64,000 nt of DNA from Mycobacterium spongiae (GTDB lineage: Bacteria; Actinomycetota; Actinomycetes; Mycobacteriales; Mycobacteriaceae): NCBI RefSeq assembly GCF_018278905.1, contig NZ_CP046600.1, forward strand, positions 3,286,001-3,350,000, read 5' to 3'. The notes under the pieces were generated by a model, which was not told the origin of the DNA, searched no databases, and was given only the letters and a program-made list of their open reading frames with translations. The translations under genes and the position numbers were made by a program. This document shows positions 52,585-57,247 of this stretch, in pieces (the stretch's first letter is position 1; every line of letters starts with the position of its first letter).

Positions 52585-53786
52585 GCGACGGATCTACTCC
52601 GGCGGATGGGGCTCAGGACGGGGCTGGAGCCGTCCCACAAGAACCCGACGAAGCGGCACTGGCCGCGATGTCGAACGAGGAACTCGTCGCGCTGGGCGGT
52701 CGGATGGACGGTGTCGACACCGTCTACAAGGAGCCTCGCTGGCCTGTCGAGAACACCAAGGCCGAAAAGCGCGCCGCGCGCGGTGTTGCGATCTGGCTGA
52801 TGCTCGGTGGCGTGTTCGGGCTGGCGTTGTTGGTGGTCTTCTTGTTCTGGCCATGGGAGTTCGAGCCGGCCAACAGTGACGGCAACTTCGTGTACTCGCT
52901 GACCACCCCGCTCTACGGCCTGACCTTCGGGCTCTCCGTCCTGTCGATCGCAATCGGCGCGGTGCTGTTCCAGAAACGGTTTATCCCAGAAGAGATTTCG
53001 ATCCAAGAGCGCCATGACGGCGCTTCTCGCGAGGTCGACCGCAAGACCGTGGTGGCGAACCTGACAGACGCCTTCGAGGGCTCGACGATCGGACGCCGCA
53101 AGTTGATCGGGCTGTCCTTCGGCATGGGCATGGGCGCCTTCGGCCTCGGTACCTTGGTCGCGTTCATCGGTGGCTTCATCAAGAACCCGTGGAAGCCAGT
53201 CGTCCCCACGGCCGAGGGGAAAAAGGCCGTGCTCTGGACCTCCGGCTGGACCCCCCGCTTCCACGGCGAGACCATCTATCTAGCACGCGCCACGGGCTTG
53301 GAGGGCGGACCGCCGTTCATCAAGATGCGCCCGCAGGACCTCGACGCCGGCGGGATGGAGACCGTCTTTCCGTGGCGGGAGTCCGACGGTGACGGCACCA
53401 CCGTCGAATCGCACGAAAAGCTACAGACCATTGCCATGGGCATCCGCAACCCCGTGATGCTCATCCGGATCAAACCTGCCGACATGGGCCGCGTGGTCAA
53501 GCGCAAGGGCCAGGAGAGCTTCAACTTCGGCGAGTTGTTCGCCTATACAAAGGTCTGCTCGCACTTGGGTTGCCCGTCGTCGCTCTACGAACAGCAGTCC
53601 TATCGGATCCTGTGCCCGTGCCATCAATCCCAGTTCGACGCATTGCATTTCGCCAAGCCGATATTCGGCCCGGCAGCGCGCGCACTGGCCCAACTGCCCA
53701 TCACGATCGACACTGACGGCTATCTGGTCGCCAATGGCGACTTTGTCGAGCCCGTAGGACCGGCATTCTGGGAGCGCACCTCATGA
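52581..53786 (+). CDS. qcrA: Rieske iron-sulfur subunit QcrA
   Basis: A 401-residue protein started at the ATG overlapping the qcrC stop (MSDGSTPADGAQD); shorter N-terminus than the ~429 residues I recall for M. tuberculosis. Three membrane helices follow (~80-100, ~115-135, ~180-205), as in actinobacterial QcrA. The Rieske domain has CSHLGC and CPCHQSQFD, binding the 2Fe-2S cluster. It takes electrons from menaquinol at QcrB. Its stop overlaps the first qcrB start. A copy of its 3' end lies at 55446-55592. Confidence 0.97.
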   Translation: MSDGSTPADGAQDGAGAVPQEPDEAALAAMSNEELVALGGRMDGVDTVYKEPRWPVENTKAEKRAARGVAIWLMLGGVFGLALLVVFLFWPWEFEPANSDGNFVYSLTTPLYGLTFGLSVLSIAIGAVLFQKRFIPEEISIQERHDGASREVDRKTVVANLTDAFEGSTIGRRKLIGLSFGMGMGAFGLGTLVAFIGGFIKNPWKPVVPTAEGKKAVLWTSGWTPRFHGETIYLARATGLEGGPPFIKMRPQDLDAGGMETVFPWRESDGDGTTVESHEKLQTIAMGIRNPVMLIRIKPADMGRVVKRKGQESFNFGELFAYTKVCSHLGCPSSLYEQQSYRILCPCHQSQFDALHFAKPIFGPAARALAQLPITIDTDGYLVANGDFVEPVGPAFWERTS

Positions 53787-55603: not shown

Positions 55604-57247
55604 GTGAGTCCGAGGACCCCAAAGATGGGCGATGTCCTCGCGCGCCAAGGCGAGGACATCGATACCCGCTATCACCCGTCAGCCGCGTTACGCCGTCAGC
55701 TCAACAAGGTGTTCCCGACCCACTGGTCGTTCTTGCTGGGCGAGATCGCGCTCTACAGCTTCGTCGTGCTGCTGATCACCGGCGTGTACCTGACGCTGTT
55801 CTTCGACCCGTCGATGCTCGAAGTGAGCTACAACGGCGTCTACCAGCCCTTGCGTGGAGTGGAGATGTCGCGCGCCTACGAATCGGCGCTGGACATTTCC
55901 TTCGAGGTCCGCGGGGGCCTGTTCGTCCGCCAGGTCCACCACTGGGCCGCCTTGTTGTTCGCCGCGTCGATCATGGTGCACCTGGCGCGCATCTTCTTCA
56001 CCGGAGCATTCCGGCGGCCCCGCGAAGCCAATTGGGTCATCGGTTCGCTGTTGCTCATCCTGGCCATGTTTGAGGGCTACTTCGGCTACTCACTCCCCGA
56101 CGACCTGCTGTCGGGCATCGGTCTCCGCGCAGCGTTCTCGTCGATCACATTGGGCATGCCGGTCATCGGGACCTGGCTGCACTGGGTGCTGTTCGCGGGC
56201 GATTTCCCCGGTGACATCATCATTCCCCGGCTCTACGCGCTGCACATTCTGCTGCTGCCGGGAATCATGCTGGCGTTGATCGGGCTGCATCTGGCATTGG
56301 TGTGGTTCCAGAAGCACACCCAATTCCCCGGCCCGGGACGCACCGAACGCAACGTCGTCGGTGTGCGCGTGATGCCGGTGTTCGCATTCAAGTCCGGCGC
56401 GTTTTTCGCGTCCATCGTCGGTGTGCTGGGTCTGATGGGTGGGCTGCTACAGATCAACCCGATCTGGAATCTGGGTCCCTACAAGCCATCCCATGTCTCG
56501 GCCGGCTCGCAGCCGGACTTTTACATGATGTGGCCCGACGGATTGGCCAGGCTATGGCCGCCGTGGGAGTTCTATTTCTGGCATCACACCGTTCCCGCCT
56601 CGGTCTGGGTGGCGGTGATCATGGGCCTGGTTTTCGTCCTGCTACCGGCCTACCCGTTCCTGGAGAAGCGGTTCACCGGCGACCGCGCCCACCACAACCT
56701 GCTGCAACGCCCGCGCGACGTTCCGGTGCGCACCGCTATCGGCGCCATGGCGATCTCGTTCTACATGCTGCTCACACTGGCATCCATTAACGATCTCATC
56801 GCGTTGAAGTTCCACATCTCGTTGAACGCGACGACCTGGATCGGACGCATCGGGATGGTGATCCTTCCCCCGCTGGTCTACTTCATCACCTACCGGTGGT
56901 GCATCGGGCTGCAGCGCAGCGACCGAGCGGTGCTCGAACACGGCATCGAGACCGGCATCATCAAGCGGCTGCCACACGGCGCCTACATCGAGCTGCACCA
57001 GCCGCTTGGCCCCGTCGACGACCACGGCCACCCGATCCCGCTGGAATACCAGGGGGCTCCGCTACCCAAGCGCATGAACAAGCTGGGCTCGGCCGGATCA
57101 CCCGGCCGGGGCAGCTTCCTCGTCGCGGATCCCCCAGCAGAGGACGCAGCACTACGCGAAGCGGACCACGCCGCCGAACAGCGTGCGCTCACCGCGTTGC
57201 GCGACCATCAGGAGGACATCTCCGGCTCACCCAACGGCGAGCACTAG
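55604..57247 (+). CDS. Cytochrome b subunit QcrB, copy 2 (paralogue with Pro at the Thr313 equivalent)
   Basis: A 547-residue protein started at a GTG (MSPRTPKMGDVL) 8 bp after AGGAG; same length as copy 1 and about 95% identical by my reading (some 28 differences). All cytochrome b helices and His ligands are kept, so it looks functional. Changes cluster at residues ~177-222 (L177F, A195V, T204D, LI to IM) and 311-342 (T311P, E312D, I317L). Residue 311 equals M. tuberculosis Thr313, where substitutions give resistance to telacebec. It could replace or vary copy 1 in the complex. Confidence 0.93.
   Translation: MSPRTPKMGDVLARQGEDIDTRYHPSAALRRQLNKVFPTHWSFLLGEIALYSFVVLLITGVYLTLFFDPSMLEVSYNGVYQPLRGVEMSRAYESALDISFEVRGGLFVRQVHHWAALLFAASIMVHLARIFFTGAFRRPREANWVIGSLLLILAMFEGYFGYSLPDDLLSGIGLRAAFSSITLGMPVIGTWLHWVLFAGDFPGDIIIPRLYALHILLLPGIMLALIGLHLALVWFQKHTQFPGPGRTERNVVGVRVMPVFAFKSGAFFASIVGVLGLMGGLLQINPIWNLGPYKPSHVSAGSQPDFYMMWPDGLARLWPPWEFYFWHHTVPASVWVAVIMGLVFVLLPAYPFLEKRFTGDRAHHNLLQRPRDVPVRTAIGAMAISFYMLLTLASINDLIALKFHISLNATTWIGRIGMVILPPLVYFITYRWCIGLQRSDRAVLEHGIETGIIKRLPHGAYIELHQPLGPVDDHGHPIPLEYQGAPLPKRMNKLGSAGSPGRGSFLVADPPAEDAALREADHAAEQRALTALRDHQEDISGSPNGEH

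What the first reader, a model, noticed from the sequence alone, without database searches (positions are those of the whole stretch)
53783..57247. Tandem qcrB duplication whose second copy has Pro at the telacebec-resistance position
Two full-length cytochrome b genes of 547 codons lie in tandem behind one qcrC-qcrA. In copy 2 residue 311 is CCC (Pro, 56534-56536), where copy 1 has ACC (Thr, 54713-54715). This equals M. tuberculosis QcrB Thr313, since the M. tuberculosis protein is 2 residues longer at the N-terminus; changes of Thr313 are known to give resistance to Q203/telacebec. Residue 312 also changes (Glu to Asp). A species with one ordinary and one altered QcrB could swap subunits under inhibitor or quinone-mimic pressure, a built-in target-variant system for the bcc complex.
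Basis: partly seen in the sequence, partly recalled or inferred. Interest (0 to 1): 0.9.

Follow-up and report, generated by a model that had tools for sequence, protein, structure and literature searches.

The report
Tandem cytochrome b genes, second remodelled
This mycobacterium carries two neighbouring copies of the gene for a central respiratory subunit, and the second copy has a coordinated set of changes around the site where menaquinol and several tuberculosis drug candidates bind, a set that also turns up in some other mycobacteria.

Summary
Confirmed: two intact 547-residue qcrB genes lie in tandem behind one qcrC-qcrA. Copy 2 has Pro at the position of M. tuberculosis Thr313. The spacer holds an eroded qcrA 3' end, so this is an old tandem duplication, not an assembly repeat. 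The copies are mosaics: near-identical tracts (0-1.2% nt difference) alternate with patches that differ by 10-17%, as expected if gene conversion homogenised much of the gene.

Pro313 is not a lone change. In main-locus QcrBs outside the window, the five columns that best mark Pro313 are 313, 314, 319, 396 and 397 (M. tuberculosis numbering). Copy 2 differs from copy 1 at all five and has the same residues, P-D-L-S-I. Pro-type QcrB occurs in 15 of 396 genus genomes, own included, by an exact DNA pattern; 13 of these have two or more qcrB matches. In M. numidiamassiliense and G387 it is the only match, so it is probably competent.

Best reading: an alternative cytochrome b with a remodelled quinol-oxidation pocket, sharing partners with copy 1. 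Inhibitor tolerance is plausible but untested. The tandem arrangement was seen only here.

The parts
51039..51650 (+). ctaE (cytochrome aa3 oxidase subunit III), first gene of the row
   Evidence: ORF list; its homologue lies at the same place in all 9 fetched regions that hold the qcrCAB locus (L221, L223, L225, L227-L232); gene name recalled
51709..52584 (+). qcrC, the only one in the genome
   Evidence: NCBIfam NF050122, 359.8 bits, cut-off 200; one match in the genome
52524..53786 (+). qcrA (Rieske subunit), the only complete one; ORF bounds, true start probably internal
   Evidence: NCBIfam NF050121, 386.1 bits, cut-off 275; one full match and one remnant in the genome
53783..55426 (+). 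qcrB copy 1, Thr type (T311/E312/I317/A394/M395 = Mtb 313/314/319/396/397)
   Evidence: NCBIfam NF050120 759.5 bits, cut-off 500
55473..55603 (+). eroded 3' end of qcrA carried along by the duplication; TAG at 55590-55592 where the intact gene has TGG
   Evidence: qcrA residues 381-420, 63% identity, 1 TAG, match to 55604; 78% nt identity over 123 aligned nt; sequence
55591..55595 (+). AGGAG, putative ribosome-binding site of copy 2 (GGGAG at the same place before copy 1; GGAGCGCACCTC common to both)
   Evidence: sequence; function inferred
55604..57247 (+). qcrB copy 2, Pro type (F178/P311/D312/L317/S394/I395 = Mtb 180/313/314/319/396/397)
   Evidence: NCBIfam NF050120 758.9 bits, cut-off 500
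56135..56137 (+). codon 178 TTC: Phe for Leu180 (telacebec contact)
   Evidence: contact list in PMC8616580 section 7
56534..56539 (+). codons 311-312 CCC GAC: Pro-Asp for Thr313-Glu314
   Evidence: alignment to 7e1v
56552..56554 (+). codon 317 CTA: Leu for Ile319
56783..56788 (+). codons 394-395 TCC ATT: Ser-Ile for Ala396-Met397
56279..56518 (+). tract identical to copy 1 but for 1 of 240 nt (likely gene conversion)
56639..56758 (+). tract identical to copy 1 (0 of 120 nt differ; likely gene conversion)
56804..57052 (+). tract nearly identical to copy 1 (3 of 249 nt differ; likely gene conversion)

Best explanation
An old tandem duplication of qcrB, with the end of qcrA carried along, left a second cytochrome b gene in the qcrCAB row. 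It is kept as a working isoform. Gene conversion keeps much of it equal to copy 1, but several patches, among them those that line the quinol-oxidation (Qp) pocket, have stayed or become different and carry a coordinated haplotype (P313, D314, L319, S396, I397, plus F180). Copy 2 probably competes with copy 1 for the same QcrC, QcrA and aa3 partners, so the cell would hold bcc-aa3 complexes with Thr-type and Pro-type Qp sites and, because the bcc complex is a dimer, mixed dimers. The Pro-type site should bind menaquinol and Qp-site inhibitors differently. Whether the gain is inhibitor tolerance, a different quinol or redox range, or both, is inferred, not shown.
For: Both copies are open, full length and above the NCBIfam QcrB cut-off. 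dN/dS between the copies is 0.15 (dS 0.196, dN 0.0295). No His differs between the copies. Patchiness: the sum of squared identical runs was reached in 0 of 20,000 permutations. Diverged patches: codons 151-225, 306-345, 386-400 and 484-547 (13.3, 17.5, 15.6 and 10.4% nt difference); near-identical tracts: 226-305, 346-385 and 401-483 (0.4, 0, 1.2%). The five columns that best mark Pro among main-locus QcrBs (5 Pro against 135 Thr rows, window rows left out) are all changed in copy 2 to the same residues (hypergeometric 2.5e-7, which ignores linkage between neighbouring sites). 3 of the 12 reported telacebec contacts differ (p 0.019). Pro-type is the only qcrB match in G387 and in G243 = M. 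numidiamassiliense, which argues that it is functional. No terminator-like site lies in the 177-nt spacer, and GGAGCGCACCTC precedes both starts.
Against: No expression, protein or inhibitor data for either copy were available. The longest identical run alone was not significant (p 0.07). Two patches (codons 1-150 with 5.6% and 484-547 with 10.4% difference) hold no reported telacebec contact, so the pocket does not explain every patch. Copy 2's branch is longer than copy 1's (0.045 versus 0.018), and dN/dS 0.15 exceeds the 0.075-0.105 seen between copy 1 and five related main-locus genes, so some relaxation is possible. Co-variation rests on few independent events: five independent pairs on well-supported branches; Ile397 goes the same way in 3.1 of 5 on average and does not differ in 1.9, Ser396 3.4 and 1.6; median sign-test p 0.125-0.25 over the four partners. 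Of 25 Pro rows, copy 2 included, only 11 have Ser396+Ile397. Patch trees could not place copy 2. The choice of contact and resistance positions was made after copy 2's changes were known.
Confidence: 0.62

Rival explanations
1. Target-variant insurance: copy 2 is kept because it tolerates natural Qp-site inhibitors (quinone mimics of other microbes), and the Thr-type copy is kept for efficiency.
For: Changes at Leu180, Thr313, Glu314 and Ala396 sit on reported contact or resistance positions. The M. abscessus natural telacebec-resistance residues include Asp at what I map as the Glu314 place (passage of a review; the original was not read). Pro genomes carry two or more qcrB matches in 13 of 15 cases against 59 of 381 others (on counts; shared ancestry not corrected, and some matches are pieces of one split gene).
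Against: Two genomes have Pro as the only qcrB match. In 10 of the 15 genomes, own included, the Pro copy is itself the extra copy, which makes the two-copy association partly circular; for the five with Pro in the main locus it is 3 of 5 against 59 of 381 (p 0.03). No biosynthetic cluster or natural inhibitor was looked for, and no inhibitor test exists in my calls.
Confidence: 0.3
2. Condition-specific respiratory isoform, as proposed for QcrB3 of Streptomyces coelicolor spores: copy 2 is tuned to another quinol, redox or oxygen state, and the inhibitor link is incidental.
For: PMC7931247 (passages) reports QcrB paralogues in S. coelicolor, one made in spores and proposed to replace QcrB. 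Stand-alone QcrBs occur in many mycobacteria (44 Thr and 7 Pro distinct rows); 47 of these 51 differ from the commonest main-locus set at one or more of seven positions (180/313/314/317/319/396/397), against 34 of 140 main-locus rows.
Against: Copy 2 sits in the same gene row with the same ribosome-binding sequence and no visible separate control, which favours co-expression; the promoter scan found no site in 50900-57600 at all and so says little.
Confidence: 0.35
3. Redundant duplicate (dosage or drift): copy 2 is a fading paralogue whose differences carry no function.
For: Longer branch and somewhat higher dN/dS; the tandem copy was seen in one genome only.
Against: Open frame, purifying selection, and exact re-use of five residues that mark Pro-type QcrB elsewhere are not what drift gives.
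Confidence: 0.15
4. Import: the Pro patches of copy 2 came by recombination from another mycobacterium rather than by change in place.
For: In codons 306-345 copy 2 is less like copy 1 (84.7%) than like some other species' genes (up to 89.2%, trait codons left out). With codons 301-400 alone, trait codons left out, the five main-locus Pro rows form one group (support 80), which hints that this stretch moves.
Against: No close donor among 191 other distinct sequences. Patch tests reject neither copy 2 with the Pro rows nor copy 2 with copy 1 (AU p 0.207 and 0.328 for the Pro patches; for patch 151-225, 0.715 and 0.896 with the free search having missed better trees). An old duplication partly overwritten by conversion gives the same picture.
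Confidence: 0.35
5. Assembly or contamination artefact.
For: Only one assembly was available; records of this or a very near genome may be left out by the tool, and the listed database proteins are at most 88% (copy 2) or 90% (copy 1) identical, so no second strain was seen.
Against: Copies differ by 107 nt, are joined by an eroded qcrA remnant, and sit in a single-contig genome (99.99% complete, 0.2% contamination).
Confidence: 0.03

Closest known systems
QcrB, cytochrome b subunit of the actinobacterial bcc-aa3 supercomplex (NCBIfam NF050120; M. tuberculosis QcrB, PDB 7e1v)
   Same: Full length, same family and locus; copy 2 aligns over residues 5-547 with the M. tuberculosis chain
   Different: Two copies in one gene row; copy 2 has the Pro-type Qp haplotype
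QcrB2/QcrB3 paralogues of Streptomyces coelicolor (PMC7931247, passages)
   Same: Extra cytochrome b; QcrB3 is proposed to replace QcrB in the supercomplex
   Different: QcrB3 lies at another place in the genome and is 55% identical to QcrB; here tandem and 95% identical
Stand-alone qcrB paralogues of other mycobacteria (found here, e.g. L213-L220, L226)
   Same: Second QcrB in a genome; one group next to acpS and a FAS gene also has Pro313
   Different: Not beside qcrCAB; the six distinct rows of that group have Gln at 317 and Ala396/Met397 rather than Ala317 and Ser396/Ile397
Single Pro-type QcrB of M. numidiamassiliense (L033) and genome G387
   Same: Same P-D-L-S-I set
   Different: Only one qcrB match, in the normal qcrCAB row
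Natural telacebec insensitivity of M. abscessus QcrB (Sorayah 2019, through passages of the review PMC10877060)
   Same: Asp at the Glu314 place; position 396 changed (both by my mapping)
   Different: The review names four residues (Mtb 314, 317, 182, 396 by my mapping) and not Thr313; copy 2 has Ser, not Cys, at 396 and is unchanged at 182 and 317

Membership tests
Actinobacterial QcrB (NF050120) | Score above the curated cut-off of 500 bits | tested here: met
   758.9 bits for copy 2, 759.5 for copy 1
Actinobacterial QcrB (NF050120) | Cytochrome b domains PF13631 and PF00033 | tested here: met
   Both over cut-off in both copies
Actinobacterial QcrB (NF050120) | Assembles with QcrC/QcrA and carries two hemes b | not testable with these tools
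   No His differs between the copies; assembly not measured
Pro-type QcrB (group defined here) | Pro at Mtb 313 with Asp314 and Leu319 | tested here: met
Pro-type QcrB (group defined here) | Ser396 and Ile397 as in 5 of 5 main-locus Pro rows | tested here: met
   Copy 2 has both; 0 of 135 main-locus Thr rows have either
Stand-alone QcrB paralogue (S. coelicolor QcrB3 kind) | Gene away from the qcr-cta locus | tested here: not met
   Copy 2 lies 177 nt behind copy 1
Telacebec-resistant QcrB | Thr313 replaced | tested here: met
   Pro; the changes named in the passages I saw are Ala and Ile, not Pro
Telacebec-resistant QcrB | Reduced inhibition of the enzyme or strain | not tested
   No inhibitor data for this species in any call
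Inducible target-variant resistance system | Separate control of the second copy | tested here: inconclusive
   No terminator-like site in the spacer; no promoter-like site anywhere in 50900-57600 by a sigma-70 scan not made for mycobacteria

The most novel reading that the evidence does not exclude
Mycobacterial cytochrome b exists in two alternative Qp-pocket types, Thr-type and Pro-type, linked by a co-varying set of residues and reached several times independently. This genome holds both types in one operon, with gene conversion homogenising much of the protein but not the pocket, so that it makes mixed bcc dimers with two different quinol-oxidation sites.
Probability: 0.3. Interest if true: 0.8.

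Novelty: new variant of a known kind. Interest (0 to 1): 0.55.

Why it matters
QcrB is the target of telacebec and other candidates, and species differences in response are often put down to cytochrome bd. A natural Pro-type pocket, sometimes beside a Thr-type one, is a concrete sequence marker that could be checked when the inhibitor response of environmental mycobacteria is measured. It also offers a natural test of what Thr313, Ala396 and Met397 do in quinol oxidation, since some lineages appear to live on the Pro type alone.

Tried and rejected
Assembly repeat: rejected (107 nt differences, eroded qcrA remnant). Pro313 as a one-off mutation: rejected by 15 of 396 genomes, own included, and 12 of 140 database proteins. 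Those 140 are the union of two lists of the best 120 out of 7,980 and 7,982 hits, so they are not a random sample; all 12 were in the first list.

Copy 2 and the main-locus Pro rows as one gene lineage over the whole gene: rejected (58 rows, AU p 4e-5), though conversion with copy 1 would itself give that. Copy 2 deriving from the acpS-FAS stand-alone gene: not supported (different residues at 317, 396 and 397; separate branch). Looking for a donor of the Pro patches: none found; trees of 150-225 nt were too weak, and in the 151-225 tests the free search missed better trees. Remnant closer to another species' qcrA: best 80% (L230 and L017, both G187) against 78% for the own gene, not decisive. 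The union of contact and resistance positions from the papers (18 positions) is hit 4 times (p 0.010), but this list was put together after the changes were known.

The broad pattern hit 199 of 396 genomes; the matches I looked at were mostly not at qcrB places, its list was cut, and I replaced it by the stricter one. One search (PMC6999911) held none of the residue names asked for. A structure prediction was not run, since a model without the ligand would not settle binding.

Literature on a second or tandem qcrB in mycobacteria: one search listed four papers, judged by title and abstract and not opened; one search listed PMC7931247 (Streptomyces, passages seen) and PMC10024696, whose qcrB passages show a citation number behind qcrB, not a second gene; one search listed none. 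No paper holds both T313P and qcrB. The library lacks most subscription journals.

Rows dropped before counts: only matches over 380 residues and 60% identity were kept (242), and places were called stand-alone when no qcrA match ended within 400 nt before the start; 3 rows under 480 residues and repeats of the same place were left out for the 193 rows.
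Full report
OBSERVATION. The window is part of a single-contig genome of 5,581,157 bases. The gene row is ctaE, qcrC, qcrA, qcrB copy 1 (53783-55426), spacer, qcrB copy 2 (55604-57247). Both copies code for 547 residues, with 28 residue and 107 nt differences. Residue 311 of copy 2 aligns with Thr313 of the M. tuberculosis chain 7e1v. The whole genome has two qcrB, one qcrC, one full qcrA and a qcrA 3' remnant with a TAG, and one cytochrome bd subunit I by Pfam PF01654.

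ORIGIN. The remnant in the spacer shows that the duplicated unit was the end of qcrA plus qcrB. It is only 78% identical to the own qcrA 3' end over 123 aligned nt, while upstream ends from 170 main-locus matches (repeats of some genomes included, offsets chosen to fit the remnant) have a median identity of 84% to the own qcrA end and 73% to the remnant. So the duplication is not recent. The copies are sisters in a tree of 193 distinct QcrB rows (support 100; branch 0.018 for copy 1, 0.045 for copy 2). Yet their differences are patchy: 13.3, 17.5, 15.6 and 10.4% nt in codons 151-225, 306-345, 386-400 and 484-547; 0.4, 0 and 1.2% in 226-305, 346-385 and 401-483; 5.6% in 1-150. Permuting the 349 codons that vary between the copies or among copy 1 and five relatives, the clustering of identical runs was reached in 0 of 20,000 draws, while the longest run alone was not significant (p 0.07). 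I read this as gene conversion that spared or failed to reach the patches; selection against conversion in the pocket patches is an inference. The N- and C-terminal patches hold no reported telacebec contact, so the pocket does not explain every patch.

THE POCKET. PMC8616580 section 7 (read) lists telacebec contacts in QcrB: Tyr164, Gly175, Ala179, Leu180, Thr184, Ser304, Pro306, Met310, Thr313, Glu314, Ala317, Met342. Copy 2 differs at Leu180, Thr313 and Glu314 (hypergeometric p 0.019). Thr313 changes to Ala or Ile are resistance mutations (PMC8523172 passages; PMC9017309 passages). A396T is used as a QcrB resistance allele (PMC9017309 and PMC9435431 passages). A model in PMC6178619 places S182, M342, T313 and L176 around the quinol oxidation site (passages). 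M. abscessus is naturally insensitive because of QcrB polymorphisms; four residues are named (review PMC10877060 passages; the original paper was not read). By my mapping, with an offset of 3, these are Mtb 314, 317, 182 and 396.

A RECURRENT HAPLOTYPE. Among main-locus sequences outside the window (5 Pro, 135 Thr rows) the columns that best separate Pro from Thr are 397 (Ile 5 of 5; Thr rows Met 134, Ser 1), 396 (Ser 5 of 5; Thr rows Ala 127, Cys 8), 313, 314 (Asp 5 of 5; Thr rows Glu 123, Asp 12) and 319 (Leu 5 of 5; Thr rows Ile 112, Leu 19). Copy 2 is changed at all five, to the same residues. In 333 rows including the database proteins, 25 have Pro, copy 2 among them. 11 of these 25 have Ser396+Ile397, 1 has Ser-Phe and 13 have Ala-Met; Ile397 occurs in 0 of 308 Thr rows. 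Of the 14 without Ser-Ile, 7 are stand-alone copies from genomes and 7 are database proteins of unknown surroundings. The best tree needs 8 changes of the Pro label, gains and losses together; on well-supported branches five independent pairs remain. In these the partner goes the same way, the other way, or does not differ in 4.1/0.1/0.8 (Asp314), 3.9/0.0/1.1 (Leu319), 3.4/0.0/1.6 (Ser396) and 3.1/0.0/1.9 (Ile397) on average; too few for a sign test to reach 0.05. The co-variation is therefore striking by residue identity but not proven by independent events. Recombination among Pro lineages in codons 301-400 is hinted and not excluded.

DISTRIBUTION. At E <= 1e-100, 386 of 396 genus genomes matched (a sample of a larger group, at most three candidates scored per genome). 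I took from that list 71 genomes other than the own with two or more matches and looked at their places: 36 and 35. None is a tandem pair; some are single genes split by frame or contig breaks (for example G034, G254, G334), and matches at contig ends could hide a neighbour. A search for the junction (281 nt around the spacer) matched 85 of 198 relatives, own included, but over the full 281 nt only the own genome; other listed matches are shorter pieces, largely the qcrA-qcrB boundary. Each of the 80 named loci L032-L111 shows one qcrB in the flanks held, some flanks being short. The strict pattern for FYMMWP[DE] hits 15 of 396 genomes, own included; variants with other letters before Pro are missed. 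In nine others the Pro copy is an extra copy: seven fetched regions share neighbours that I read as acpS and a FAS gene (clusters; Pfam checked on L213 only), one (G269) lies elsewhere, and one (G187) is split by contig ends and its surroundings were not fetched. In five it is the copy in the qcrCAB row (G029, G243, G324, G338, G387), of which G029, G324 and G338 have a second qcrB match.

WORKING MODEL. Shown: intact gene, purifying selection (dN/dS 0.15), pocket haplotype, shared ribosome-binding sequence, no terminator-like site in the spacer (the eight sites found in 50900-57600, against 3.6 in shuffles, all lie inside reading frames of the row). Inferred: co-transcription, assembly with the single QcrC and QcrA, mixed dimers, altered quinol or inhibitor binding. 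Among reasons for keeping it, I give about equal weight to a quinol or condition isoform and to inhibitor tolerance. Precedent for an alternative cytochrome b is QcrB3 of S. coelicolor (PMC7931247 passages).

NOVELTY. The protein family is known; a second QcrB is known in Streptomyces. The tandem pair and the Pro-type haplotype were not found in print in my searches (listings, with the passages), within an open-licence library only.

Counts and wordings were mended against the calls (nine, not ten, main-locus regions; named loci; list of second copies with stops; tree counts; unopened papers).

Noticed in passing
L213-L218, L220 (G006, G202, G044, G227, G340, G381, G046): A stand-alone Pro-type qcrB without qcrC or qcrA sits beside acpS and a FAS gene (7 of 7 by clusters), with a histidine kinase and a LuxR-type response regulator on the other side (7 of 7) and a DUF2339 membrane protein (6 of 7); domains checked on L213 only. 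In G044 it is split into two frames.
   Followed up: partly
L233-L238, L240-L243, L245-L247, L253, L254, L256, L257 and others: Other stand-alone Thr-type qcrB genes are common in the genus; 24 of 51 distinct stand-alone rows have Asp314 with Ile or Val at 317, 14 of these with Ser396/Phe397, so many extra QcrBs have altered Qp-pocket residues.
   Followed up: partly
G045, G087, G091, G146, G168 and G309, second matches: These second qcrB matches carry one internal stop codon in the translated match, suggesting decay of the extra copy in some genomes.
   Followed up: no
L222 and L224 (G338, G029): Where the main-locus QcrB is Pro type, a Thr-type stand-alone qcrB lies near an AraC-type regulator gene (domain checked on L222, homologue in L224), the reverse of the usual pairing.
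   Followed up: partly
window 58033-58974, minus strand: Proline-rich ORF between qcrB and ctaF-ctaC; a homologue, whole or in part, is at this place in all 9 main-locus regions. Function not examined.
   Followed up: no
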